The position numbers and the translations under genes are program-made. The notes beneath the pieces were generated by a model that had not been told where the DNA came from, did no database searches, and worked only from the letters and a program-made list of their open reading frames with translations. This document shows, piece after piece, positions 11,150-34,356 of a DNA stretch of 64,000 nt. The DNA comes from Carya illinoinensis. Taxonomy: Eukaryota > Streptophyta > Magnoliopsida > Fagales > Juglandaceae. Within the stretch, counting starts at the first letter, position 1; every line of letters begins with the position of its first letter. The DNA lies in assembly GCF_018687715.1 (NCBI RefSeq), contig NC_056754.1, positions 21,881,001 through 21,945,000 on the forward strand. The letters run 5' to 3'.

Positions 11150-13050
11150 CAAAAGCTTCAAAACCAATATGTTTCCCCGCGATGTTTGCTATACTCCGGA
11201 ACCATCAGAAACGGCTTTGAAAACCAGGAATGTGTTGCGAAAAGCAATAGAATTAAAACAATGACGACTTTCGTCGAACAGGTGAACGTGAAAATTAGGT
11301 GAAGAAAGCTTTACTTCCAACGACACGCACACGCTTCAGTTATGAGACCAGTTCAAGCGGATAACTGTCTGCATCGGATACAGTCGTACAGACGTTGAGA
11401 CTTTGGAGGAGCGACCGCCCAAAATGGACAACATCAAATAAATATATAAAATAAACCAAATTTGCACGAGTGGGCTCTACATCCACCGACTCGGATCCAA
11501 AATTGGTCCGGACAAGTGTAAAATTCCTCAATTTTTTATTTTTGATTTATTTTCCTGTATTTTTATAATATTTTAAATTATTTAAAAAATAAAATAAAAT
11601 TCACAACATCAATAAAAAAATATTTAAATAATTACTAAATAAAAAAATAAAAAAAGTATAGAAAAGATACTCAAAGCTATTATCAGGATTTCAAACATTT
11701 CTCTTTACACATTCACAGATCTAACAGCTGAATTTTATACTTCAAACGTGCGAATAGTGTTCATTTTGATTATTATCTCTATTTTATTTTTTTGAACTTG
11801 ATATTAAATAATAATAAAAACTCGTTTTACTTGTATATTAATTAGGTTGATGAAAGAATAATAATTAATAATGTTAGGTATAAAATGAGAAAAATTTTAT
11901 TTCTCATATTCATTATTTTTAAACTATATATCTATCTATATTTTATATTTTTTTTATTAATAAATATGTGATATAAATTTGTTGAGTAAGAAACTTATAT
12001 AAATAATTGGGTCCTCAAAGCTCATGTTGCATTAAAAGCCCGACGTACAATGATGTAAGAGAGAATCTGAGGTGGGATTACACTTAAAAGCAAGACACTT
12101 GACTCGAAAAGGAAGGGAGAGGCAACAAGAGGACACTTCTATTTCTGCTTGTTAGCATTGATATTGCTCTTATCAAAGCTATGTCTAAAATTTAATTAAA
12201 AGTATATATTTTATATAAAATGAAAACCATTCAAATTATAATTTTACATTAAATTTTTTAAAATAATAATATAATATTATTAATAATAATATTTTTAATT
12301 TTCTTATATCATATTTTATAATTATACTAATTATATGTTAATTAATAATTTACTTTTTATTTAAATTATTATTTTCTAATTAAATTTTTTCCTCAACTTA
12401 TTTGCAGCCTAAAATTCATGTGGCCAAAATCATTTGCAGCCTTAGAATTCAAGTGCCACCTAGAATGCAGAGTAGATTATAGGACCAGAAATGTAAATAA
12501 AACAAAAAAAAAAAAAAAACAGCAGAATGTATTAACATCGCTTTTGGAATACGATATCACTGCACTTGGTCTGATATTTTGAAATAAAATTTCACTTTTG
12601 AAAATAAACAATTCATATTTTAATACGAAGATAGACTTAGAAATATTGTAACTCAAACATGAAATTCTTACTATTTGACTACTCTAATGCAGATCATTTT
12701 ATCTATATATTTTTTTTAAATTTTGAAGATGCACTAACATTTAGCTAAACTAATACAAGTGCTCTTAGAAGATTCGTTGATTTTATAAAGCATAATTTTT
12801 GTCGCATATCTTGTACTGTGATGTTGAAAGATCCCATAGATTGAGACACACCAATTGTAACAATACTGTGTAAATGCATAAATGAAATACATCTCTCACC
12901 CTCACGATCAAGTGTGAGAAAATTCACAAAGCATGTATTGCTCTGTTCATGAGTGGGTCGAAGAATTACTACTTAACACTTAGAATCTTATTTCAACCAT
13001 ACAGTCATAGACTCCAAATTTTCAATGACACATAGGATTCTTTGTTTTGA
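11150..13050. other. ADT1 upstream region with a MITE-like insertion
   Basis: This is the upstream region of ADT1. Positions about 11460-11710 resemble the segment at 20240-20460 (shared order: GGCTCTA, CCACCAACTCGG-like, GACAAGTGTAAAA, AT-rich core, then ATTATCAGGAT). It is therefore a dispersed repeat about 310 bp upstream of the ADT1 start codon. 11520-12400 is very AT-rich, with an A tract at 12503-12520. No other gene is visible. Confidence 0.5.
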
Positions 13051-17874: not shown

Positions 17875-19049
17875 TTACATATATTACTTTTAAATTAGTG
17901 TGGATCTTGACACAACGGCGCATCTTACATGTCAAATTGTTTAAATCCGAAGTTTAATACCTTTCACTCAATTTTTATCATGTCAGTAGTGTAAATGATG
18001 TGTTCTCACTGTCAAAATGCGAACATAAATATTTTATTTATCATAAAATATACACAGCAACCTCACACTTTTTCATACTATTGAAAAATGTGATTTTATT
18101 ATTTTACCATTTTTTATTTTACATTTCAAAAATAATGATGTATTGGATGTGAGACTGTTGTGTAGTATGCCTCTTTATTTGTTACAAGTGGTCCACGACA
18201 ATACATCATACGAGATTGTTATCGAAGTCCAAATATGATGCATCCAAATATGGAGTGGGCTAATGATGGAGGCCTCTCCAAAGATAAATTGTATATTATG
18301 CCAGTTGGTCCAAAACAAAAAAATCGACCGGATCGACCCATTTGAATCAGACTAAACTCTAGACAGGTTGGTCTCGATCTTAAAAAATGTGAACAGAATA
18401 GTATTCGGTCTAGTTTCAGAGTCTATAAGTTTTGGATTGGACTAGACTAAAAATTTCAATCCATCACCCAATCGAATCGGACCAATTTACACTCCTTATT
18501 AACATCTCCCATAAAATTCCTCAGGTCTTCATCCCTTTTTCTTTTTTCTTTTCTTTTCAATTTAGTCTAAGCAAAAGAAAAAATAGAGGAGTTTTGAAAT
18601 GAGCAGAGAAATTACGATGAAATACTTGGTACTGATTTCACCTTTCAAACACTTCTAATCTTCACCTTATCCCTCAATCTTCACCTTATCCCTCTCTTTC
18701 CTCTTCACTTCTCTGTTGCGCCGCCATCTTCACTTGTACAGATCTCTACAGTCACCTAGTATAAGAAACTACTTTGTAGAGCTAGATTAAAAAAATTCTG
18801 CAAAATGTTTTAAAGGCCACTTCATAATATTACAAGAGTTACATAGCTTGGTCACCTTTTCTTTTCTGGGTGAATGAAGTCATTCATGGTGTTGTTGTAT
18901 TTGATAATTTATTTATATCTTAGGAACCAATCAATCCCTCTTTCAAAAGGTGAATGGTTGCCCCACAAGTGAACTTTCTAGCAAATAAGAAATATGGAGT
19001 GAGATTGGAGTGAATTTGGCACCATTCGGTTTGGTGTTCAAATTCATAG
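17341..19049. other. Intergenic; (TTA)n microsatellite, no gene seen
   Basis: An A-rich tract lies at about 17455-17480. A (TTA)n microsatellite of about 20 units spans 17812-17872. Positions 18300-18490 contain decayed CCGGATCGACCC/CGGTCTAG-type sequence typical of hAT-like non-autonomous elements. No coding signal was found. Confidence 0.5.
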
Positions 19050-20370
19050 TCAATAGTGCTACATACCCCCAGGGTGTAACCCCGCTGCGGCCTCTTTGCC
19101 GACATCAGCTGGTAATTTAAAAAAAAAAAATGAAAACGGACGAAAGCTGAAAGGTAACGCGGGAGGGAGGGGGAAAGCCATTTTCACCTGATTTTGAAGA
19201 GAAAACTCGAAGGAGCCCAAAACCGGAACCTCCCACCTCGCCGACGAGCTGTAACAGATGACCATTTACCAGCTTCTTTCATCTGCATCTGTGGGTAAGA
19301 GACGGGTCGATTCTGGTGAACAAGGAGGAGACGCAGGATCCATAAACCGGAACCTCCCAACGTCGCCGACGAGCTGTAACAGGTGACCTTTTACCAGCTT
19401 CTATCATCTGCATCTGTGGGTAAGAGATGCGTGTGATTTTGAAGAACAAGGACGAGAACTGTGCAAGAGCCGAAACTGGGTTTAACTACGCAAGAGAGGT
19501 CGCCGAGGCTTTAACTGGGATGGAATGAGAGAGCTCGCCGAGGCTTTAACTGGGTTTTTTTTTTACAAATTCATCTGCATTTGTGGGTAAGAGAACGATT
19601 TTGGCACTGAGTTTTTCTTTGAACATTTGATTTGTGTTGTTGCTTTGTGAATGTCGTTTGCTGTCTTTATTTTCATTAAATATTTTGTGGTTGTTTTTAT
19701 TTGTATTTCCTATTGCTTAGTACTCCTATTGATAAGGCAAGACAGCGGGAAATTTATTCATTTAGGCAGAAGATCGGCTAGTTCATTAGCATGCACAATC
19801 TGATCTTTAGTCAAAGAAAGCATCAAAAGATTAGTAGAGAGAATCCAACTGATTGTGAAGTTATCATGTTGTGCTTTCTCTAATGTTATTTTTGGACATA
19901 CCACATTTGTTTTTCAGCTAAACCCAAATATTTTTATCAAGATTCCAGCGGTACATGCAAGGGAAACATTTTATTTGTTTATTTTTGGTTGAATCCAAGG
20001 GAAACACAGCTCTGAAAGTATGCCTTTACCTTCTAGAAATTCATTTTTTTTTTATTGGAAAACTCACCTGTTTTGTAAACTAGGAAATAAAGAAAATAAC
20101 AAATTAAATTATAGAGAATCTAGTACCGATGCATGTTGTGTTGGATGCTTTGTTTAGAGTTTAATTTCATTGTCTCCCAAGTTTCAATATGTATTAGAAT
20201 TTAATTTGTAAGTTCTGGTTTTTGTTAACATTTTAAGAGTGGCTCTATAGGCTACAGCCACCAACTCGGGCGACAAGTGTAAAAAAGTTTTTATTTTTCT
20301 TTGTTTTTCATGTATGTTTAAAATACTCTTAAATATTTTTTTTTTAAAATTCACAATATTAATAAAAAAT
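19050..20370 (+). repeat. Left inverted arm (TIR) of the MULE
   Basis: This is the reverse complement of 27411-28721 throughout, with scattered substitutions and indels. The outer half is GC-richer. It contains a roughly 140-bp direct duplication (19220-19440), each copy with GCCGACGAGCTGTAACAG and CATCTGCATCTGTGGGTAAG, plus a third short CATCTGCATTTGTGGGTAAG near 19570. The inner part (20240-20370) contains the dispersed repeat also seen at 11460-11710. Confidence 0.85.
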
Positions 20371-20652
20371 ACTTAATCACTAGGTGTATATATATATGTA
20401 AAATCATATGTCGATAGAAATGCTCGGGACCATTATCAGGATCCCAATCATTTCTCTTGTTCTTATTATTGGTGCACTCAAATGAAGATCTTCAACTCAC
20501 TAGAAAATGAAAATAACAACTAAATAGAAAAAGGAAAAATAACAATAAAAGAAAAAAAGTGTTTCTAAGTTTGGATTTAGAGATGAGATTGTCAGTTATT
20601 ATACTTATGTTGAATTACTTAATTGGTGCCAGTTCTATTATATTTTCCCAGC
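20371..20652 (+). promoter_or_regulatory. 5' flank of the FAR1-like transposase gene
   Basis: This is the short unique segment between the left arm and the first ATG. It holds an (AT)n stretch (20382-20397) and ATTATCAGGATCC. It must carry at least part of the promoter or 5' UTR unless transcription starts in the arm. No definite TATA box was assigned. Confidence 0.3.
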
Positions 20653-23600
20653 ATGGAAAACGAGAAAAATCAGCCAACTCTGCAGTCGTTATCTACCTCA
20701 AATCCCCCATCCGAGGTATGTATGTTATATAATTGAAAAAATCGATTACATTGGTACTCTTGGTATTTTTTTCCCAAAATACATCAATAACATTTATCTA
20801 ATAACATGTTAGGCCATACCATCAAGTAGTCAAAACATTCCAAATTATATGCCTAGTTACTTTGGAGCAATGCCTACGTGGTCACCAACCTTACTACCAT
20901 ATCCGGCTGGTAACCAATATCCAATCAACATACAGGTAGTGATAACTGATTGATCTGGATTTATTCATAATAAGTTGGCTTCTTTGCAACTATCAAAAGA
21001 ATAAGATACTTGTTGCAACATTTTTATATGATATCCTTTTATAATTTGTTGCAGAATGCTGGTTACTCATTTCAACAGTTCATGGAACAGCCGACTCCTT
21101 TTAGCAATGCAAGCTCTGCCACGAGCAAAATAATTGGTTCAGAGCTGGATAATAAAACTGATGGTGGGGAATCTGAAGCGCCATGTGGATCTCCTATAGT
21201 TGATCCATGCACTGAGGATAGACCAAATCTTACGGAATGTAATAATGCCAGTGGCGAGACATCTTAGAATGTCGAAGTGGTTGATGATGAGGCGATTGAG
21301 GAGCCAAAGTCGGGAATGGAGTTTAATTTCCTTGAAGAGCTACTGAGTTATTATAAGGAGTATGATAAAAAATGCGGATTTGGGGTGATGACAAAACAGA
21401 CTGATAGGGATGAAGATGACTCTGTTAGATACATCACTCTTTGTTGTGCTCGTGGTGGGAAAGCCCGGAATCGCACGTTGAATGTTGCCAACCCACGTCC
21501 GACAGGAAAGACGGAATGTAAGGCAAAGATTAATGCCTTAAGGAAAAATGGAGTGCTTCGGTTGACGACAGTACACAATATCCATAACCATGGCCTCAGT
21601 CCGAAGAAATCCTGGTTCTTTCGATGTAATAGAAAAGTTAGTGATGCCGTAAAAAGGGTTCTAGATACAAATGATATGGCTGGCATTCGAGCGAATAAGC
21701 GTTACGAATCTCTCGTTGTTGGTGCGAGTGGGTTCGAGAATCTCCCATTTTTGGAAAAGGACTGTCTTATTATATTGACAAATCAAGACATCTACGACTT
21801 GGCGCAGGTGGTGCCGGAGCATTCCGACAGTATTTTTTAAGGATGCAATACAAAAATCTTGGGTTCTTTTATATGATGGATATAGATGATGATGGGAGGT
21901 TAAAGAACGTCTTTTGGGCAGACCCCCGTAGTAGAGCAGCGTACCAATATTTTGGTGATGTGGTCACATTTGACACCACATACCTAAATGAATCGATATG
22001 AGATGTCCTTTGCACCATTTGTTGGTGTAAACCACTATGGACAATTAATTTTGTTGGGAGTAGGGTTGATTTCTAGCGAGGATATTGAGACGTTTGTGTG
22101 GTTATTCGAGACATGGTTGCAATGCATGGATGGTAACGCTCCAAAAGCTATTATCACTGATTAAGATAGGGAGATGAAAAATGCAATCGCAATTGTCTTT
22201 CCAAATACCCAGCACAGATTTTGTCTTTGGCATATACTGAAGAAAGTTCCAGAGAAGCTTGGTTCATATGGTTCCTACAAAACTGGGATGAAAAATGCAT
22301 TGATGAAATGTGTATATGACAGCCAGCATGTTTATGAGTTTGAGAAATGTTGGGATGAGTTGCTTACTACTTACAATTTGCATGAGAATGCGTGGTTGCA
22401 TAGCCTATACGTTGAGCGTGAACATTGGGTGCCGACATTTTTGAAGGAGTGGTTTTGGGCTGGAATGAGTACCACGCAGTGAAGCGAGAGCATGAATGCA
22501 TTTTTTGACGGTTATGTACATTCTAGAACAAACTTAAAGGAGTTTGTAGACCAATTTGATAACGCGTTGAAAAAAAAGATTGAGAATGAAAATCTCGCGG
22601 ACTTCCATTCATTTAATGTCACAATCCCCTGCATTTCTAGATCTCCAATTGAAAAGAGGTTCCAAGAGTTGTACACGATTGCTAAGTTCAAGGAAGTCAG
22701 CAGCAAGTGAACGGTATCATTGACTTGAATCCAAAGTTACATAATTCTGTTGGTGCCATAAAGACATATCTGGTTGACGATGAAGTTTGTTTGGAAGAGT
22801 TTACTAAGTTGGTTAAATATTTTGTGGAGTTTAGTGAGATTGATGCAGTTGCAAAGTACTCATGTGGATTATTTGAGATGAGGGGAATATTGTGTCGGCA
22901 CATTTTGGCCGTATTCAGGTGTAACGATATCAAATATTTGCCCGAAGTGTACATTTTAGATCGATGGAGGAAGGATATTAAAAGGCGATACACTTTAATT
23001 AAAAGTAGCTACGATGAAGGGGAACAACGACCAGATTCTAATACATATTCAAGTCTCTTAAGTATATGTTATCAGATGATTACCCATGCAGCGGGTTCGA
23101 GTAAGCATACTGAGGATGCAAGGACTAAATTAGAAGCAATGATTGAGCTTTATCGTGCCAATGAAGAACCACCATCGATGACTCAAATTGGTTCCAATGT
23201 TGATAGTACGGCAAATGCTAGGGAAGTACACAGCCCACGTGTGGTTAAAGGAAAAGGCAAACCTTCAGCTCTGAGGAGAGCATCCAGGATGGAGATAGAC
23301 ATGCGGAAAGCGAAAGTAAAGATGAAGAAAGCACCAGCAAAGGGGAAGCGTAAAGAGGTGCATATATATATATGTATATTAACTTGAATTAGAATTTATT
23401 TTATAAATGAATTAAAAGATGTAATGTATTTTTATTTGTTTTGGCATTTTTATCGAGAAGGAGTACACACCCGAGTCACGGAAAGAGAAGATACGCCTGT
23501 TGTGGAAGTATGGAGGAATTTATTTGGCCCTTTTGAGCTTGATGTGTCTAACATGGTATGTTAATTAGTATAAGTATATCGAGGATACCAATTATTTTGC

Positions 23601-23828
23601 AATATTGATGAGTTTGTGTGTCAACAGCCAATGCCAGAAAGAGAAAGCACGGCTTCAGCTGTTTTTGGAACCCAGCCATAAGAAATAGTGATGCAGAGTC
23701 AAGAAAGCGTAAGTGGTCCTGCCTCATTTTCGAGTTTGTGAAGTATTCTCTATTACATAAATAAAATATTTTTTGTTTAATATTTACAAATGCAAGTTGG
23801 GTTGGATGGATCACAACCTTTGCAATAA
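20653..23828 (+). pseudogene. FAR1/FHY3-like MULE transposase, inactivated
   Basis: Exons: 20653-20715, 20813-20935, 21055 to about 23357, then short 3' exons to about 23828, with GT-AG junctions at the first two introns. Domains in order: FAR1-type DNA-binding domain (21310-21720; paired cysteines, HNIHNH); MULE DDE domain with FDTTYL (first Asp), AIITD (second Asp) and SESMNAFF (Glu); SWIM zinc finger (YSCGLFEMRGILCRHIL, about 22855-22910); basic C terminus. It is broken by in-frame stops at 21265 (TAG), 22162 (TAA), 22480 (TGA) and 23680 (TAA), and by frameshifts near 21780, 22000 and 22697. It would have been the element's transposase; related proteins include the light-signalling factors FAR1/FHY3. 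Confidence 0.88.
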
Positions 23829-23929
23829 TGGGTTCTCAATTAAATCTGATTTGGAAACATTTATCATGGATTGGAGCGAATTTATCATCGATTGGAAAGA
23901 ATTTAAGTGTATTTGAGCATTTCATTTTG

Positions 23930-24420
23930 TGAAGTATTGTTGGAAAAAAGCATGTATGTGAGCAACTATTTGAGCAAGTTAATTAGTATTAAAAGATATT
24001 GTTGGAAAATAGGCATGTATTTGAGATGAATTTATTTTGGGATGAAGTGTTCATGCCCAGAAAATATTTAGTTTGCAATGAAGTTGGAAATTCTGTTGGT
24101 GTATTTGAGCATTTGGGTTTGTGAAATACTTGTTAGAAAATAGGCATGTATTTGAGATGAATTTATTTTGGGATGAAGTGTTCATGCCCAGAAAATATTT
24201 AGTTTGCAATGAAGTTGGAAATTCTGTTGGTGTATTTGAGCATTTGGGTTTGTGAAATATTTGTTGGAAAATAGGCATGTATTTGAGATGAATTTATTCT
24301 GGGATTAAGTGTTCGTGCCCAGAAATTATTTGGGATATTGTGAATATGTACATTCTATCTTTATTTCGGTTTGTGAAGTATTTGTTGGAAAGTATGCAGG
24401 TATTTGAGCAGAACGTTATT
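23930..24420. repeat. 131-bp tandem repeats between the convergent MULE genes
   Basis: AGGCATGTATTTGAG recurs at 24011, 24142 and 24273 (period 131), with degenerate copies before and after (about 23950 and 24395). The full unit also holds GATGAAGTGTTCATGCCCAG and GCATTTGGGTTTGTGAA. It lies between the 3' ends of the transposase and GRF genes. Confidence 0.9.
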
Positions 24421-24945
24421 TTGGGATGAAGTGTTCATGCCCAGAGATTTAGTGATTCAGATTGTGAAGTTGGGAACAATTTATCAGGTGTATATAATTG
24501 ACAGTTATGTATCCAGCTGGATTGGTGCATTAGAAGTTATCTTTTGGGTTCAGCGGGTTGTAATTGTGCAAATAAATTTATACGCATCCATGTAAGGCAA
24601 AGATTTTTGACATATACTGGCATAGTGGTTACGTAATGGATGCCTGCCAAAGCGTCCCTGAAGCAAATAAAACTGGGTTCTAAATGTCATTTTGCCTTCA
24701 GAAAATAATACCTGAAAAAAAGAAGGATTAAAATCCTACTTCTGAAACCATCTATTACTCATGCCAACAAATACCCAATATGCAGAACATCAGTTTCTTG
24801 TGAAGCGTTGGTGCTTCCAATTCCACCAAATAACTACAAACATAGCACTAGTAACTAAAATCCCAAATTGAGCCAATACCAGAAAATAATACAATTGTAC
24901 AACACTATTTGAGCTAACAATGAACTAAGAACTACAAATCCCAAA

Positions 24946-25533
24946 TTACTTATATAATACTAGGTAACATGCATGTACAAAGGCTAAACAACAATAAATC
25001 CAAAGTAGGGAAGCCAAACGCCTTATTTTAGCTTCTTGTGCTGCATGCACCAACTCCTTTTGCATATCCTCGTCGATTTTTTTGGTTAGTACGATCTCCA
25101 CTCTCTCGAGGCGATCCACTATCTTACGTAGCTCCATCTCTCTCTTCTCGAGATGCTCGAGTATTTTCTCAACCTCTTTCTCTTTCTTTAACAATTCGTT
25201 GGCCCTTTCTCGAAATTGTAGCTCAGTCACTTCATTACCATCCAACCACTTGAAAAACTTACAATATGGTAAGCCCTAATGATTTCAGAAAAATCATTAG
25301 AAATAATTGAACTGTACTGGAAATTAAAAATTATATATTAAAAGATGGCCGTGGCATCTAATTAGTGTGGTTACCTGGGTATTGTATTTTGAACACCCCA
25401 AAAACGGTCGTCTGGGATTTTTTGCAGTTGTAGACCATTTCAAAGTGGCTTCAAGCTCGCAAAAGCACAATGTTTGACCCAAAATACGTTTGGGAAAAGA
25501 TGAAGAAGATATTAATGAGGATGATGATGACAT
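24946..25533 (-). CDS. GRF-type zinc-finger, coiled-coil, membrane-anchored protein (2 exons)
   Basis: Exons 25533-25375 and 25275-24946 (intron 99 bp, GT-AG, phase 0) encode 162 aa without interruption. A Ser-rich start is followed by a GRF zinc finger split by the intron: C-x-C (LCFCELEA), then NPRRPFLGCSKYNT in exon 1 and LPYCKFFKWLDG in exon 2. A Lys/Glu-rich coiled coil follows (about 75-130), then a C-terminal hydrophobic segment (about 137-160). Short GRF-coil-TM proteins are common but uncharacterised in plants; GRF fingers bind nucleic acid in other proteins. Here the gene lies inside a transposon, convergent with the transposase. The GRF signature itself is altered (RRPF instead of GRxF). 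The start at 25533 was chosen because relatives begin with Met-Ser-rich sequence; 25551 is an alternative. Confidence 0.82.
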
Positions 25534-27410
25534 TCTAAGATGAACCCCCATAAAACAATTGAATGACTTCTTGGATAATAACAATGCCAAACCACCCTCA
25601 AACAAAACCCAGAAAAGATAATAACAAACTCCCAACCAATCATAAACACAAGCATTCATCAGCAACCTAACCAATCCAATATGATAATAACAACCTCACA
25701 ACAGAGGCCCACAATCAATAACCCAACCATAATTATATAGCTCAAATAAGAATAAAACTCTAAACAAATCTCAATTGGGAGAAAGTGTAGAGATGCATAA
25801 AACAATCAAACGTCGATCTAAATATGAAAACAATCTCACAACATCTCAATTGTTTCAACATTCTAAGCATGTCTAGCTAGTGTATCTGCCATTTCATTAC
25901 CTAGCCTATTAACAACTAAAATCAGCAACTTCATATCTTCAGAAAACAGAACACCAATTTTGAAGATGATACTGCGGAATGTTGAAGGTCTTCTATTAAT
26001 AGCAAACAATCACACTTTCAACAATAATCCTCTTTATTCCCATATATTTATGTTGTAACGATATTCAATTTTTATAAAAAAACCAAGATCAATTCAACAA
26101 TCCAAAATGATATAAAATAATGTCATAGTCAATCCCAGCAACCAAAAACATTAATCAAAGTAAACACAGTTCGTTGGGACAATGCCAAACCACCCTAAAA
26201 CAAAACCCAGAAAAGATAATACAACCCCCCAACCAATCATAAACACACAAGAAGCAAACAATAACCCAACCATAATCCAACCCACGAAATATAACCCAAC
26301 AGAAACCCACAAACAATAACCCAACCAGAATCATGAAATCCAAACCCACGGCATATAACCCAACAGAAACCAACAAACAATAACCCAACCAGAATCATGA
26401 AATCCAAACCCACGGCATATAACCCAACAGAAACCCACAAACAATAACCCAACCAAAATCATGAAATCGAAACCCAAGGCATATAACCCAACAGAAACCA
26501 ACAATTAATAACCCAACCAGAATAATGAAATCAAAACCCACTTATATAACCCAACAGTAGCCCACAAACAGTAACCCAACCATAATCATGAAATCGAAAC
26601 CCACGGCATATAACCCAACAGAAACCCACGCACAGGCTTAAAATTGTAACCCAAAAATTGTAATGAATCGAAGAAAACCTACTTAAAAGAACCTCACAAG
26701 CTTAACTGAGGGAGATAAGAGAGAGATTCACTACCTTGTTAGTCTTCGACGGGTCGAAAACGGAAACTGCAATAGGCAAGAACAGAGGTGACGACGTCAA
26801 AAATGGAGGTTCGAGGGAGAGGGAGGACGATGGAGATATTAGGGTTAGGGTTTTACGAAATGTTAGGGTTAGGGTTTGAGAAATGTGGAGAAGATAGGTT
26901 ACGGATGATAGGGTTGAGAGAAGAGCGAGAGCAAAGAGATAGATGAGAGATTGTATTATCGAGCGAATGAGAGGGTTGGAGTAAATCTAGATTTGGGTTA
27001 GGTTTGGGCGATTAGGTTACGGGAGAAGAGAGGGAGATTTGGCAGATTAGGTTACGGGGGAGAAGAGAGGGAGATTGGGCCATTAGGGTTTGGGCGATTA
27101 GGTTACGGGAGAAGAGAGGGAGATTTGGCCGATTAGGGTTACGGGAGAAGAGATGGGGAGAAGAGAGGGAGATTTGGCCGATTAGGGTTAGGGGACTCGA
27201 GGGAGGCAGATGATAGAAAAGAGAGATGAGGGAAGACGGGGATGATGCCAACATTGAATGCGAGAGAGGAGAGAGATTGATTATGCCAACGTTGAATGCG
27301 AGAGAGGAGAGAGATTTAGCCAAAATCAAAACGACACCGTTTTGATCATTATGCCACGTAGGCCACGAGGCCGCGGCGGGGTCACTTCCCGGGGGCATAC
27401 AGACTTTTCC
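25534..27410 (-). promoter_or_regulatory. Upstream region of the GRF gene: 64-bp repeats and telo-box-like motifs
   Basis: This holds three things. At 26270-26640, five to six copies of a 63-65 bp unit contain CATATAACCCAACAGAAACC. At 26838-26880 there are two TTAGGGTTAGGGTTT stretches (telo-box-like). At 27000-27200 GATTAGGTTACGGGAGAAGAGAGGG is repeated. A possible 5' UTR splice donor (AACAAG|GTAGTG on the minus strand) lies near 26737. ORFs reading through the repeats are low-complexity artefacts. Confidence 0.45.
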
Positions 27411-28721
27411 ATTTTTTATTAATATTGTGAATTAAAAAAAAAATTAAGAGTATTTTAAAAATACATGAAAAACAAAGAAAAATAAAAACTTTTTTACACT
27501 TGTCGCCCGAGTTGGTGGCTGTAGCCTGTAGAGCCACTCTTAAAATATTAACAAAAACCAGAACTTACAAATTAAATTCTAATACATATTGAAACTTGGG
27601 AGACAATGAAATTAAACTCTAAAAAAAGCATCCAACACAACATGCATTGGTACTAGATTCTCTATAATTTAATTTGTTATTTTCTTTATTCCCTAGTTTA
27701 CAAAACAGGTGAGTTTTCCAATAAAAAAGATGAATTTCTAGAAGGTAAAGGCATGCTTTCAGAGCTGTGTTTCCCTTGGATTTAGCCAAAAAAAAAAAAA
27801 AATGTTTCCCTTGCATGTACCGCTGGAATCTTGATAAAAACATTCGGGTTTAGCCGAAAAACAAATGTGGTCTGTCCAAAAATAACATTAGAGAAAGCAC
27901 AACATGATAACTTCACAATCAATTGGATTCTCTCTACTAATCTTTTGATGCTTTCTTTGACTAAAGATCAGATTGTGCATGCTAATGAACTAGCCAATCT
28001 TTTGCCTAAATGAATAAATTTCACGTTGTCTTGATTTTCAATAGGAGTACTAAGCAATAGGAAATACAAACAAAAACAACCACAAAATATTTAATGAAAA
28101 TAAAGACAGCAAACGACCTTCACAAAGCAACAACACAAATCAAATGTTCAAAGAAAAACTCAATGCCAAAATCGTTCTCTTACCCACACATGCAGATGAA
28201 TGTGTAAAAAAAAAAAAAACCCAATTAAAGCCTCAGCGAGCTCTCTCGTTCTGTCCTAGTTAAAGCCTCGGCGACCTCTCTTGCGTAGTTAAACCCAGTT
28301 TCGGCTCTTGTGCAGTTCTCGTCCTTGTTCTTCAAAATCACATGCATCTCTTACCCACATATGCAGATGATAGAAGCTGGTAAAAGGTCACCTGTTATAG
28401 CTCGTCGGCGATGTTGGGAGGTTCCAGTTTATGGATCCTGCGTCTCCTCCTTGTTCACCAGAATCGACCCGTCTCTTACCCACAGATGCAGATGAAAGAA
28501 GCTGGTAAATGGTCACTTGTTACAGCTCGTCGGCGAGGTGGGAGGTTCCGGTTTTGGGCTCCTTCAAGTTTTCTCTTCAAAATCAAGTGAAAATGGCTTC
28601 CCCCTCCCTCCCGCGTTACCTTTCAGCTTTCTTCCGTTTTCATTTTTTTTTTAAATTACCGGCTGACGTTAGCCCCAAGGCCGCAGCGGGGTTACACCCT
28701 AGGGGTATGTAGCACTATTGA
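27411..28721 (-). repeat. Right inverted arm (TIR) of the MULE
   Basis: This mirrors 19050-20370, with the same internal duplication of the GTCGGCGA / CATCTGCATCTGTGGG block. It ends GGGGTTACACCCTAGGGGTATGTAGCACTATTGA (positions 28688-28721). The inner border at 27411 directly abuts a terminus-like motif. Confidence 0.85.
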
Positions 28722-28931
28722 AGAAATAAGGATAAGTGGGACCTTGTGAGGGTGTGCGGTGTAAGGGCGGACGAATAGCATAACTCTACTAAAATAGTAG
28801 ATTGTAGTGATCTTTTCTTAGTTGTAGTTTTAAGTTGAATTCGAAGAGTGCAAAAATTCGACTATATGCAAACTACTTAGGCTTTCTATCTATATATTCA
28901 AAACTACTTGGGCTACCCTACAAGGACACAG

Positions 28932-29285: not shown

Positions 29286-29539
29286 TGTTGAGAACTTGAT
29301 AAAAGAAAGATAGGAAAATAGAAAGCTGGAAAACAGAGAGAAAGAGGATGAAGAACTATCGTATCTTGTATTGAAAATGAATTGAATTGAAATGATACAA
29401 GTGTTTTACATGTACTTATATAGAATGAAACTAGTAACAGAAAATAACTGTCAACTTGTCAAGGCTCATTCTCTATTTTACCCTTTTTATATTTTGACTT
29501 TAATTCCATATATTCTATTTTTGAGGCTATACTCCAACA
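29286..29539 (-). repeat. 3' LTR of the Copia element
   Basis: 254 bp, TGTTGAG...CCAACA. Compared with the other LTR I count seven substitutions and one 1-bp indel by eye. Confidence 0.95.
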
Positions 29540-29736
29540 CCCCTCTCAAGATGAACATGAATATTAAGGATGTTCATCTTGCATAGAGTATGATGAAAGG
29601 GTAAAGAATTAAGTGGTTTTGTAAAGATGTCTGCCAACTGTAGTCTAGATGGAATATAAAATAGTTTGATGAGGTTTTGCTGCAGCTTTTCATGAACCAA
29701 GTGGCAGTCAATTTGAATATATTTGGTTCTTTCATG

Positions 29737-32700
29737 CTAAACTGGATTTGAGGCTATGGACATTGCAGACTTGCTATCAGTGTACATTAAAGTTGGCTGA
29801 GAATTGGTGATTTGTAAATCTTGCAGTGCATAAATCAACCATTGGACTTCACATGTTATAGCTGCAAGGGCTCTATATTCTGCTTCAGTAGATGATCGAC
29901 TTATAGTTACTTGCTTTTTGGACTTCCATGAGATCAATGAGTCTCCCAAAAATATAGCAAACCCTGTGACACTTCTCCTTGTATCAATGCACCCTGCACA
30001 ATCACTATCTGAAAAAGCTTTTAGTTACAATTTTGATGATGCTGAGAAGAATAATCCTTGACCTGGAGTGGCTTTCAAGTACCTTAATACTCTAACTACT
30101 GCTAGATAATGACTCACAACAAGCTTAGCAAGGAATTGGCTGAGGACTTGAACTGAATATGCAAGGTCTGGTCGTATAAGTGTTAAGTATAGGAGTCTCC
30201 CAATAAGTCTTCTGTAAGCTGATGGATCTTCATAAAAAGTAGAATAGTAGCTGTGAGTTTTAAATTGGTCTCAATTAGAAATGCAATAGGCTTTATACCA
30301 ATTGTTCCCATGTCTTGAAGAATATCTAGTGCATATTTCCTTTGGCAAAGAGAGATACTTGCTTTTGATCTTGCTATTTCTAAACCAAAAAAATATTTTA
30401 GTGGCCCCAAGTCCTTTATAGTAAATTTATCATGCAGAAATTCTTTTAGGAGTTGAATTTCCTATAAGCTATCACTAGCTAGCAACACATCATCAACATA
30501 TACCAGCAATGCCATGAAGGATGTTGTGGATTTCTTTATAAAAAGAGAGCAATCAGAAATTCCTTGACTGAAGCCATAGCTAATGAGGGCAGTGGATAGT
30601 TTTTCAAACCATTTTCTAGATGCTTGCTTGAGGCCATAAAGGCTTTTCAAAAGATGACAAATCTTATTTTCTAGATTAGGCATTCCAGGGGGCAGTTCCA
30701 TATACACTTCTTCTTGTAAATAACCATGTAAGGATGCGTTGTTGACATCCAATTGATGAAGATGGTTCCATATACACTTCTTCTTGTAAATAACCATGTA
30801 AGGATGCATTGTTGACACCCAATTGATGAAGATGCCAGTTCTTAATTGCAGCTACAACAAGTAATAGTCTAATAGAAGTCATCTTTGCCATAGGAGAAAA
30901 AGTATCAAAGAAATCCAAACCCTCTTGTTGATTATAGCCCTTTGCCACTAATATAGCCTTGTGGCTTTCTATGCTTTCATCAGTTTTATATTTTACTTTG
31001 AATACCCATTTACAACCAATAGTCTGTTTATTTTTAGGTAGAGTAACAAGGTTCCAAGTTTTGTTTAACTCCAAAGCATCAATTTCATTTTTCATAGCTT
31101 GTTGCCATTCAGAAAATTGTGCAGCTTGTTTATAGCTTTTAGGTTCTGGACAGTTTGATATTGAAGCAAGAAAAGCTCTATGAGAATTAGATATTCTACT
31201 AGCATATAAGAAAGATGAGATAGGGTATGGATTACCTTTAGAACCATTTGTAGAAGAAGTGAGGTGTTGCATTTAAAGAAACATTGCTGCAATAGTAGTC
31301 TTGCAAAAAACTAGGTTTCTGTCTAACTCGAGAAGATGTTTTTTTTTGTTTGGACTATTGTTAGGTTGATAATGAGTTGTGGAGATATTTGGATCAATGT
31401 TTGGTATAGGCTCATTGATAGACAAAGTTAAATCACTCTGGTTAGGAATAACAGTTGGAATTTTAGAGTAATGGTCTGCACTATATGAATTTTTTGAGAT
31501 AGGAAACAAAAAGGAATGAGTATGAGAATCTATAGGGACTTCTTTAAATGGGAAAATATTTTCATGGAATGTAATATTCCTTGAAATGAAAATTTTATTG
31601 CTATTGAGATCCATGACTTTATAACCTTTGATATCAGATATCCAAGGAAGACACATTTTGTAGCTCTTGGGTTGAATTTTTGTCTATGATGTTGCAATGT
31701 AGATGCAAAACAAAGGTAACCAAAAACCTTTAAATGAGAAAATTTTGGTATTTTGTTAAACAACATTTCATAAGGTGTTTTATTATTGAGAAGTGTGGTG
31801 AGAATTCTATTTATTATATGAGTAGCAGCTAGTACACAATCACTCCAAAAGGACAAGGGGATATTAGCTTGAAACATTAAGGCTCTAGCTGTGCTAATTA
31901 TGTGTTGATGTTTCCTTTCAACCACTCCATTTTGTTGTGAATTTTCTACATAACTTCTTTGGTGTAAAATTCCATTTTCATGATAAAAATCATTGATAAA
32001 AAATTCTGGTCCATTATCAAACCTTATTATTTTGACAGATGTGTTAAACTGAGTTTTAATCATGTTGCAAAAATTCTAGAGTGTAAAAGAAACTTTAGAC
32101 TTGGTTTTAAGCATATAAACCCAAATACATCTTGAAAAATCATCAACAATTGTTAAGAAAATTTTAAAACCTGAGTAAGAAATTGTTGCAAATGGACCCC
32201 AAATATCACAATGTATCAAATCAAAACTTTTATTAGAATTGGTATGAGATACAGCAAAGGGTAACTTTCTTTATTTTGCTAATGGACATACATCACAGAC
32301 ATTTTGACAATTGATAGAGATTGAAGGATCTAATTGCTTAAGGAGAAGCAATCTAGAAGAGGACGCATGGCCAAATCTGCAATGCCAGATATCTAGAGAA
32401 TTTTGTGAAATAATAGAAGCAAGAGGGGTTGAGTTAGACTTAAATGTGTTGCAGGGCGAAGCCTTAGGATCAGCTTGTTGTAAAATATAGAGCCCATGTT
32501 TCTCAAATGCAATCCCAATCATTTTCTTCAGGGATTGGTCCTGTAAAAGGCAATGAGAATGAGAAAAGGATAAGTAAAGATTAGAACATTTGGTAAGCTT
32601 AGAAACAAATAACAAACTAAGAGAAAAAGAAGGCACACATAATACATTTGATAAGAATATTTGATTGGAGAGACAGATTGTGCCAACATGAGTGGCTGGA

Positions 32701-32813
32701 ACTTTTTGACTATTAGGTAGGTTTATTGAAGTATCAATATTTTTGGGAGGAAAGCAGTATAATAGTGGTGAAAAGATCATATGATCTGTTGCACCAGTGT
32801 CGAGAATCCATTG
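29737..32813 (-). pseudogene. Copia pol (protease, integrase, RT, RNase H), broken
   Basis: Minus-strand order: protease motif ILDTGATDHM (about 32809-32780) just after an in-frame TAG; GAG-pre-integrase zinc region (WHCRFGHAS...CDVCPLAK, to 32271); integrase core with RFDNGPEF and VVERKHQ (32063-31530); RT starting near [13 protein letters not shown] (about 31120), with FGYLCFAS-type linker upstream and the catalytic YVDD near 30490; RNase H with SRSSTEAEYRALA and YTDSKSA (29949-29737). The pieces lie in different frames, separated by stops and a 70-bp duplication at 30696-30835, so no functional polyprotein is made. Confidence 0.9.
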
Positions 32814-33060
32814 CTAATTGGATTTTTGAGTAAATGAAGATGCAAAAGAAGTAGGATTATAAGAGGCATTACTAGAGAAATTTGAAGATGTAACAAGATT
32901 ACAAGTTGAAGGGATATTCTGAACATTTGTAGAAGACTGAGAAGGATTGGCAAGAGCTATGAGTTTATTAATCTCTTCAGCAGTTAAAGAAAATCTTGGT
33001 TCCTCATTGTTGGTTTGATTGCAGACCTCAGTTGAAATGGTATTATGAGCAGAGTAAATT

Positions 33061-33963
33061 CATTTCCCTTTTGGTCCAGCCCACCTAAGGGGATAACCAT
33101 GAAGCTGAAAGCATTTTTCAATAGTATGTCCATTGTATCCACAATGTGTGAAATGGAGTGAAGTTTTCTTGGATTTTTCTTTTGAGAACCGATATGAAGA
33201 AGTTGTTGGATTCAATTACTTTACCATCAGTGCATGTGTTTAAGTAGGAACTGAATTGCTAAGCTGTCTTTGACTCTCTTCTTGAAGTAACAGAGAAAAC
33301 ACTTTGGCTATAGTTGGTAATGGGACAACAAGAAGTAGTTCGCATCTAACAGAAGCATAGGAGTCATTCAAGCCAACAAGAAACTTCAAAATATAATCAA
33401 ATTGTTTGCATCAAGAAAGTAAAAAGATTACATGTGCAAGATGACATTTTCCCACCTGTACAAGTAGGAAATGGGCGATAGCTTACATATTCATCCCAAA
33501 GTGTTTGAAGGCACTGAAATATTCAGTGATTGAAGAAGAACCTTGATTTATGCAACTCAAGGGTTTCTCAAGGTGAAACACTCTTGGCCCATCACTCCTC
33601 AAATACCGAGTCTTCAATTCATTCCAAAGATTCAAAAGTGACATACAACAAATTGTTTCTGATCTCCTTAGAAATTGAGTTAATCAACCAAGAAAGCACT
33701 AAGTTGTTTGCACGTAACCAAGCTGTGTGTGCAACAGTTTGAGTTGTAGAAGGTGAAGTAATCGAACCATCAAGAAATACAACTTTATTCTTAACTATCA
33801 AAACTATAACAATTGAACGACTCCAAGCAATATAGTTGTTTCCATTGAAAATCTCTGAGACTAGAAGAGCACCTGGGTTATCACTGGGATGAAGGTAATA
33901 AGGGCTAGAAGAATCATCTGATGAATTGATGATTGGAGGAACTGTAGAACTTTTAGAGGACAT
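33061..33963 (-). pseudogene. Copia gag, broken
   Basis: 33963-33619 encodes the typical Copia gag N terminus (PYYLHPSDNPGALLVSEIF, WSRSIVIVL). A zinc knuckle remnant (THCGYNGHTIEKC) lies near 33120-33160; its first Cys is replaced by Phe. Frameshifts separate the two. Confidence 0.85.
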
Positions 33964-34103
33964 TTCAAGAATTGCAAAGAAAACACAGATTTTACAAAAC
34001 TATGTAAAGAATTGTAAAGATTTTACAAGATCTTGAAAGAAGATTGTGTAGTGCTGAAAGATCAAGCTCCAGAAATGTTTGCAGAATTTCTAAGCTGATA
34101 CCA

Positions 34104-34356
34104 TGTTGAGAACTTGATAAAAGAAAGATAGGAAAATAGAAGCTGGAAAATAGAGGGAAAGAGGATGAAGAACTATCGTATCTTGTATTGAAAATGAATT
34201 AAATTGAAATGATACAAGTGCTTTACTTGTACTTATATAGAATGAAACTAGTAACAGAAAATAACTGTCAACTTGTCAAGGCTCATTCTCTATTTTACCC
34301 TTTTCATATTTTGACTTTAATTCCATATCTTCTATTTTTGAGGCTATACTCCAACA
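34104..34356 (-). repeat. 5' LTR of the Copia element
   Basis: 253 bp with the same termini as 29286-29539. The primer-binding site abuts its inner edge on the minus strand. Confidence 0.95.

What the first reader, a model, noticed from the sequence alone, without database searches (positions are those of the whole stretch)
19050..28721. MuDR-like architecture: FAR1 transposase and GRF zinc-finger gene convergent between 1.3-kb inverted arms
Seen: two long inverted arms, a FAR1/MULE transposase on plus, a GRF zinc-finger + coiled-coil + membrane-segment gene on minus, tail to tail, with tandem repeats between their 3' ends. Established: maize MuDR also has long TIRs around two convergent genes (mudrA transposase, mudrB helper). 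Inference: the GRF gene is the accessory (mudrB-like) gene of a FAR1-type MULE family, which would give a context for the many short uncharacterised GRF-coil-TM proteins of plants.
Basis: partly seen in the sequence, partly recalled or inferred. Interest (0 to 1): 0.85.

Follow-up and report, generated by a model that had tools for sequence, protein, structure and literature searches.

The report
Jumping gene with zinc-finger partner
A pecan DNA stretch is a dead copy of a large family of jumping genes in which a transposase gene is paired tail to tail with a small, probably membrane-anchored zinc-finger gene, which suggests that some unexplained plant genes of this type are transposon helpers.

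Summary
The gene pair is real and recurrent; the reading of the 1.3-kb arms as the element's TIRs is not borne out. In this genome (674 Mb, several contig lengths equal to pecan's) 24 of 24 GRF genes examined have a FAR1/MULE transposase convergent on their 3' side. Conversely, 30 of 53 transposase hits have a listed GRF hit about 1.4-2.3 kb beyond their 3' end, against 0.045 expected. Where ends could be fixed (7 loci), the units have inverted termini; four have exact 9-bp target duplications, two imperfect ones, one none. So the GRF-helix-membrane gene is the regular second gene of a FAR1-type MULE family. Consecutive walnut locus tags suggest the same pair there. It evolves under purifying selection and seems to have been swapped between transposase lineages. 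The window's own element is 19051-27410: its closest relative is collinear up to 27409. The right arm, 27411-28720, is an extra inverted copy of the left end, not seen at the other four loci with a near-full arm. This transposase is a pseudogene; this GRF frame is open. What the GRF protein does is inferred, not shown.

The parts
19051..27410 (+). The element proper: a two-gene FAR1-type MULE, 8,360 bp, left end CAATAGTGCTACATAC..., right end ...GCATACAGACTTTTCC (on the other strand GGAAAAGTCTGTATGC)
   Evidence: Collinear with L039 (window 19041-27409, 90.0% over 8618 columns, one block); L040 matches 19050-24127, 24681-26629 and 26832-27411 in pieces and ends at the same place; ends resemble the asymmetric left and right ends of relatives
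19051..20370 (+). Left arm = 5' end of the element: left terminus and leader of the transposase gene
   Evidence: Near-full copies at C14, C4, C13 and C8; at C13 and C8 the FAR1 hit follows on the same strand 632 and 684 bp after the arm
20653..23384 (+). FAR1/MULE/SWIM transposase gene, pseudogene (coding blocks from 20653, 20813 and 21055; in-frame stops at 21265, 22162 and 22480 and frameshifts near 21760, 21990 and 22705); a short last exon of relatives was not mapped
   Evidence: Pfam matches; frames; relatives in Carya and Juglans
23999..24445 (.). 131-bp tandem repeat between the two 3' ends (3.5 copies)
25375..25551 (-). GRF gene, exon 1 (start codon to the middle of the zinc finger)
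   Evidence: Pfam GRF 22.5 bits on the spliced protein, below cut-off
24946..25275 (-). GRF gene, exon 2 (rest of the zinc finger, helical stretch, C-terminal hydrophobic segment, stop)
   Evidence: helix seen in the model of the relative P0001
26274..26629 (.). 64-bp tandem repeat upstream of the GRF coding exons; matches in L040 spread over a larger stretch
27361..27410 (-). True right terminus of the element
   Evidence: 34 of 50 identical to the outer end; homology to L039 and L040 ends here
27411..28720 (-). Extra, inverted copy of a left end, abutting the right terminus; origin unresolved
   Evidence: Its outer end carries the left-type terminus; 95.6% to the window's left arm, 94.7% to L039's; no match beyond the right end of L039 and L040
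19042..19050 (+). Left flank (ATTCATAGT); not repeated after 27410 (ATTTTTTAT) or 28720 (AAGAAATAA)
   Evidence: the related site L041 matches the window up to exactly 19050 and then differs

Best explanation
The locus is a degenerate copy of a two-gene FAR1-type Mutator-like DNA transposon (19051-27410). Shown: gene A (left, plus) is a FAR1/MULE/SWIM transposase and gene B (right, minus) a small GRF zinc-finger protein with a C-terminal hydrophobic segment; the pair recurs, convergent, and where ends were determined it lies in units with inverted termini and mostly 9-bp target duplications; gene B is under purifying selection in the 11 copies compared. Inferred: the transposase binds the termini and moves the element by cut and paste, and the GRF protein is an element-encoded helper. 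My preferred mechanism, not tested, is that it is a tail-anchored protein which oligomerises through its helix, binds single-stranded or nicked DNA with its GRF finger, and promotes capture, reinsertion or gap repair at a membrane such as the nuclear envelope. The right arm is an extra left end next to the element, a rearrangement private to this locus as far as tested.
For: GRF to FAR1: 20 of 20 profile hits fetched (alternate ranks 1-39) and 4 of 4 hand-picked further ones have a transposase convergent on the 3' side. FAR1 to GRF: 30 of 53, against mean 0.045 and maximum 2 in 1000 random placements. All five loci with a near-full left arm have a GRF hit on the opposite strand 5.6-6.0 kb from the arm's start. 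Exact 9-bp duplications in L011, L016, L020 and L021, 8 of 9 in L039, 7 of 9 in L040. L011 and L013, on different contigs with different flanks, are 99.8% identical over 7.3 kb. GRF omega 0.21-0.56 in 41 of 42 pairs printed. FAR1 and GRF distances correlate. L039 ends at 27409/27410, not at 28720.
Against: No target duplication at the window's own ends, by either pairing, and the sequence beyond the related site L041 matches nothing in the window. L013 has none either. Ends were determined for only 7 of the 26 fetched GRF loci; a self-comparison showed an inverted repeat around both genes in 1 of the first 20 (L025), partly because the stretches were cut. 23 of 53 transposases had no listed GRF, although the GRF lists were capped at 150 scored of 843 and of 1270 candidates. 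Deep FAR1 and GRF clades disagree; Mantel r is only 0.42. No expression, localisation or transposition data; the fold match to a solved GRF structure is weak (E 1.6).
Confidence: 0.86

Rival explanations
1. One reading: the unit is 19050-28721 with 1.3-kb long TIRs, as in long-TIR MULEs, and the terminus at 27410 is an internal relic.
For: Arms 94.5% identical and both outer ends carry a family-like terminus. MULEs with an extra TIR are known (PMC3310237, sections read).
Against: L039 and L040 end at the equivalent of 27410, with 8 of 9 and 7 of 9 bp duplications, and show no right arm. Among five loci with a near-full arm only the window has an inverted partner listed (40 of 336 candidates scored). 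No duplication outside 19051/28720. The outer right end has the left-type terminus.
Confidence: 0.05
2. The GRF protein is an anti-silencing factor, like VANC of VANDAL elements, rather than a transposition helper.
For: VANDAL elements encode such a second protein (PMC6446971, passages); a high-copy family must escape silencing (inference).
Against: GRF fingers are known from DNA-repair enzymes (recalled; the top fold match, weak, is NEIL3), and a membrane anchor is odd for a chromatin factor (inference). Nothing here tests it.
Confidence: 0.2
3. The GRF gene is a passenger, a captured host gene carried as in Pack-MULEs.
For: MULEs often capture host genes (PMC6446971, passage).
Against: Paired with a transposase in 24 of 24 GRF loci and found beside at least 30 of 53 transposases; purifying selection; two divergent versions keep the finger and a C-terminal hydrophobic segment; the apparent swaps replace one GRF version by another instead of losing it.
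Confidence: 0.05

Closest known systems
MuDR (maize), mudrA + mudrB
   Same: Two genes, transposase plus a second protein (PMC6446971, passage), convergent between inverted termini (as stated in the finding; recalled), 9-10 bp target duplications in its group (table).
   Different: Transposase is of the FAR1 type, the second gene encodes a GRF finger with a hydrophobic C-terminus, and the termini are short and imperfect. No MURB comparison was run.
Jittery group of plant MULEs (group 36 of PMC6446971, Table 1, passages)
   Same: FAR1 at the N-terminus and SWIM finger of the transposase.
   Different: The table lists one ORF for this group; here a second gene, GRF, is regular. I did not place this transposase in a tree with Jittery.
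MULEs with an antisense PMD gene (MUDR, MUDRAVI2 and others, same table)
   Same: A second gene in antisense to the transposase.
   Different: GRF-helix-membrane protein instead of a plant mobile domain.
MULEs with multiple TIRs (Ferguson and Jiang 2012, PMC3310237; abstract and sections 3.1 and 4 read)
   Same: One additional terminus; their tomato type 6 also has a transposase region with many stops.
   Different: All their 61 tomato elements had a target duplication; this one has none, and the extra terminus is an inverted left end outside the right end.
Kochia FHY3/FAR1 mobile element (PMC6808082; passages and the section on the resistant EPSPS locus read)
   Same: A mobile element with a FAR1 gene and further genes.
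   Different: Its other genes are reported as ubiquitin-like, endonuclease/exonuclease/phosphatase-like and unknown; 'GRF' does not occur in the text.

Membership tests
Mutator-like element (MULE) | MULE-type transposase domain | tested here: met
   PF10551 31.8 bits in a window piece and 123.9 bits in the relative P0016
Mutator-like element (MULE) | 9-bp target site duplication, in the family | tested here: met
   Exact in L011, L016, L020 and L021; 8/9 in L039, 7/9 in L040; absent in L013
Mutator-like element (MULE) | 9-bp target site duplication, in the window copy | tested here: not met
   ATTCATAGT against ATTTTTTAT or AAGAAATAA
Mutator-like element (MULE) | Terminal inverted repeats | tested here: met
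   Imperfect inverted termini of about 50 bp with differing outermost 15 bp; 142-bp inverted repeat, 95%, in L025
Jittery/FAR1-type MULE | FAR1 N-terminal domain and SWIM finger | tested here: met
   PF03101 53.2 bits and PF04434 26.2 bits
Jittery/FAR1-type MULE | One ORF (as tabulated in PMC6446971) | tested here: not met
   Convergent GRF gene in 24 of 24 GRF-sampled loci and beside 30 of 53 transposases
MuDR sensu stricto | mudrB-type second gene | not tested
   No MURB sequence was compared; the second protein's best Pfam match is GRF
GRF zinc-finger family (PF06839) | Conserved cysteines and aromatic positions of the finger | tested here: met
   C29, C31, C53, C64, F66, F67 and W69 invariant in 10 aligned sequences
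GRF zinc-finger family (PF06839) | Pfam cut-off reached by the window protein itself | tested here: not met
   22.5 bits against 25.9; relatives P0009 29.7 and P0135 29.9 pass
MULE with multiple TIRs | Additional terminus within the mobile, duplication-flanked unit | tested here: inconclusive
   Additional terminus present, but no target duplication and no second copy with it found

The most novel reading that the evidence does not exclude
FAR1-type MULEs of plants depend on a dedicated, element-encoded, tail-anchored GRF protein: a membrane-bound DNA-binding helper that brings transposition intermediates to the nuclear envelope or ER, and a module exchanged between transposase lineages. Many of the 'uncharacterized GRF-type' plant genes would then be transposon genes, and host FAR1/FHY3 transcription factors would descend from transposases that once had such a partner.
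Probability: 0.25. Interest if true: 0.85.

Novelty: new variant of a known kind. Interest (0 to 1): 0.62.

Why it matters
FAR1-type MULEs are very numerous here (3102 first-look candidates), and such transposases gave rise to the FHY3/FAR1 light-signalling regulators (abstracts), yet the MULE survey read here lists one ORF for the FAR1/Jittery group. A recurrent, selected second gene gives these transposons a testable helper, gives a context to plant proteins annotated only as 'GRF-type', and warns that such genes, annotated as hypothetical host genes, can be transposon genes. A membrane-anchored helper would be unusual for a cut-and-paste element.

Tried and rejected
Rejected: nested insertion of the element into a second copy of its own family (apart from a 69.7% match at 11511-11705, no piece of L039 or L040 matches the window outside 19000-28800, and there is no target duplication). 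Rejected: the right arm as a recent local copy of the left arm; left, right and L039 arms are almost equally distant (95.6, 95.0 and 94.7%), though left and right share slightly more sites (6 against 3 and 2). Rejected: chance proximity of the two genes (no other FAR1 or GRF hit at 1e-6 in the rest of the window). Led nowhere: paper searches for GRF with FAR1, MULE or transposon (nothing listed on the pair); PDB by sequence (eight matches at E 0.09-0.77, none named a GRF protein); fold search (weak NEIL3 match). The empty-site search was run only for the window and gave one related site for the left flank alone. A GRF search with P0141, meant to shrink the 23 unmatched transposases, did not complete.

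Limits: the 20 GRF loci are alternate entries of the best 39 profile hits and favour well-conserved fingers; the four extra loci were picked by hand among partial-domain hits; L001-L008 (3 kb each) were not used. In one search, 11 of the 20 loci were used (near-identical or truncated copies left out). For L020 and L021 the automatic right end was wrong and was corrected.
Full report
Observation. The arms, the two convergent genes and the repeats are in the sequence. The arms align over 1325 columns at 94.5%. The plus-strand gene has FAR1, MULE and SWIM matches in separate frames and is a pseudogene with in-frame stops and frameshifts. The minus-strand gene has two exons and an open frame of 168 codons. 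A third terminus-like sequence lies at 27410, exactly at the inner edge of the right arm; it matches the outer end in 34 of 50 bases, while its best match in five base shuffles of the window was 23-25.

Where it comes from. The best protein relatives are from Carya illinoinensis and Juglans. The window lies at 21,881,001-21,945,000 of contig C3 of a 674-Mb, 17-contig assembly; several contig lengths equal those listed for pecan proteins, so I take it to be pecan.

Do the two genes travel together? The GRF profile search gave 843 candidates, 150 scored and 148 matches. I fetched 10 kb around 20 of them (alternate ranks 1-39): 20 of 20 have a FAR1/MULE transposase on the opposite strand beyond the GRF 3' end. 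Four hand-picked hits covering only part of the finger, as expected if an intron splits it as in the window, gave 4 of 4. In the other direction, the transposase search had 3102 candidates, 53 scored; 30 of the 53 main hits have a listed convergent GRF hit 1,396-2,289 bp from the hit's 3' end, against a mean of 0.045 and a maximum of 2 in 1000 random placements. The 30 is a lower bound, because the GRF lists were capped; the 23 unmatched ones remain untested. No FAR1 or GRF hit lies elsewhere in the window.

Is the pair mobile? Comparing copies on different contigs fixes the ends. L011 and L013 are 99.8% identical over 7.3 kb with different flanks. Ends were determined for seven loci: L011, L016, L020 and L021 have exact 9-bp duplications; L039 has 8 of 9, L040 7 of 9 and L013 none. 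L025 has a 142-bp, 95% inverted repeat around both genes and a candidate exact 9-bp duplication 15 bp outside it, found by a tolerant scan. For the other fetched loci the ends were not determined. The left ends are of the types CAGTAGTTCTATA.GC and CAATA.TGCTACATAC and the right ends, on the other strand, of the types GAAAAATGCTGAGTGC, G.AAAAGTCTAAGTGC and .GAAAAGTCT.T.TGC: the outermost 15 bp or so differ between the two ends, while the following 35 or so are imperfect inverted repeats. Alignment scores do not tie the window's ends to those of L011-L021; that link rests on the short outermost motif and on L039 and L040.

What is the right arm? The left arm was searched in the whole genome: 53 matches from 40 scored of 336 candidates; six rows are near full length, at five loci. 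Only the window has two, inverted. All five loci have a GRF hit on the opposite strand 5.6-6.0 kb from the arm's start. L039 (C14) is collinear with window 19041-27409 in one block at 90.0% and stops there; L040 (C8) ends at the same place. The window's element is therefore 19051-27410, and 27411-28720 is an additional inverted left end, as its terminus also shows. Left arm, right arm and L039 arm are nearly equidistant, so the extra end is about as old as the separation of these copies. A related site (L041) matches the window from 18882 to exactly 19050 at 82% and then differs; its continuation matches nothing in the window. The left junction thus looks like an exact insertion point, while the right side has been rearranged, or the related site has. 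An alternative transposition using ends of two elements could give such a structure, but this is a guess.

The GRF protein. Two divergent versions exist: one with the finger split (window, L035-L040) and one with an unbroken frame (L009-L028). Both keep the finger pattern and a C-terminal hydrophobic segment: the best 19-residue Kyte-Doolittle mean is 1.7-3.0 in the 31 proteins printed, and lies near the C-terminus except in L012, whose frame is extended. Three of the 20 loci have frames cut before that segment (L009, L018, L026) and L028 is cut within it. The AlphaFold model of P0001 has two strands and one helix from 72 to 167, with high confidence only in the helix (pTM 0.37); Foldseek's first hit is the NEIL3 GRF pair, at E 1.6. 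Pairwise dN/dS for 11 loci was printed for 42 of 55 pairs (dS under 1.5): 0.21-0.56 in 41, and 1.89 in one near-identical pair; the finger is often but not always more constrained than the rest. Pairs are not independent and the sample favours conserved fingers.

Modules. FAR1 and GRF distances correlate (r 0.42; 0 of 2000 permutations reach it; 27 loci). In the trees many shallow groups agree (window with L039 and L040; L036 with L038; L010, L018, L019 and L025; L020, L021 and L024), but L022, L023 and L026 do not, nor do the deep groups: L011-L016, L020, L021, L024 and L028 have transposases grouped with the window's (89/100 support) but GRF genes of the other version, and L026 combines a transposase near L022/L023 with a GRF gene near L020/L021 (L026's GRF row is short). 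Exchange of halves between elements explains this; misplaced long branches are possible for L009, L022, L023, L025, L035 and L037, which the tree program flags.

Mechanism. Shown: a recurrent, mobile, two-gene, convergent FAR1-type MULE family and constraint on the second gene. Inferred: cut-and-paste movement by the transposase and a helper role for the GRF protein. GRF fingers bind single-stranded DNA in repair enzymes (recalled, not from a call), so I think capture, reinsertion or gap repair is the likeliest step. Anti-silencing, as for VANC (PMC6446971, passages), is the main rival.

Known work. PMC6446971 (passages, first part of the section with Table 1) gives one ORF for the Jittery group with FAR1, and antisense PMD genes in several other groups. 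PMC3310237 (abstract, sections 3.1 and 4) describes extra TIRs. PMC8599713 was searched inside for GRF, zinc finger, TIR and three other terms with no hit. PMC6808082 (passages and one section) describes a mobile element with a FAR1 gene and three others.

Noticed in passing
window 29286-34356: 254-bp direct repeats (29286-29539 and 34104-34356, 96.9%) around frames that look like a copia polyprotein (30462-31272; recalled): probably an LTR retrotransposon next to the element, with a 70-bp tandem duplication at 30695-30834.
   Followed up: no
L011 6306-6989, L012 3493-4049, L013 3222-3694, L014 5950-6602 and the like in L015, L016 and L028: A further weak FAR1-like match on the GRF 5' side of these units, possibly a second transposase fragment or shared leader.
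   Followed up: no
L026: Mosaic unit: transposase groups with L022/L023, GRF gene with L020/L021.
   Followed up: partly
L020, right flank after the element: The bases just outside the right end look like another right terminus of the same family (by eye), so this unit may sit in the end of a second element.
   Followed up: no
window 20235-20370 and 11511-11705: The inner about 130 bp of the arm matches other places on its own, and the arm's inner end has a 69% similar stretch at 11511-11705: an older small repeat inside the arm.
   Followed up: no
L040 7072-8061 against window 26274-26629: The 64-bp tandem repeat upstream of the GRF coding exons seems to differ in copy number between copies.
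   Followed up: no
G000:C3:21560040-21560188 (L041): Related site for the window's left flank, about 340 kb away and inverted, without the element.
   Followed up: partly
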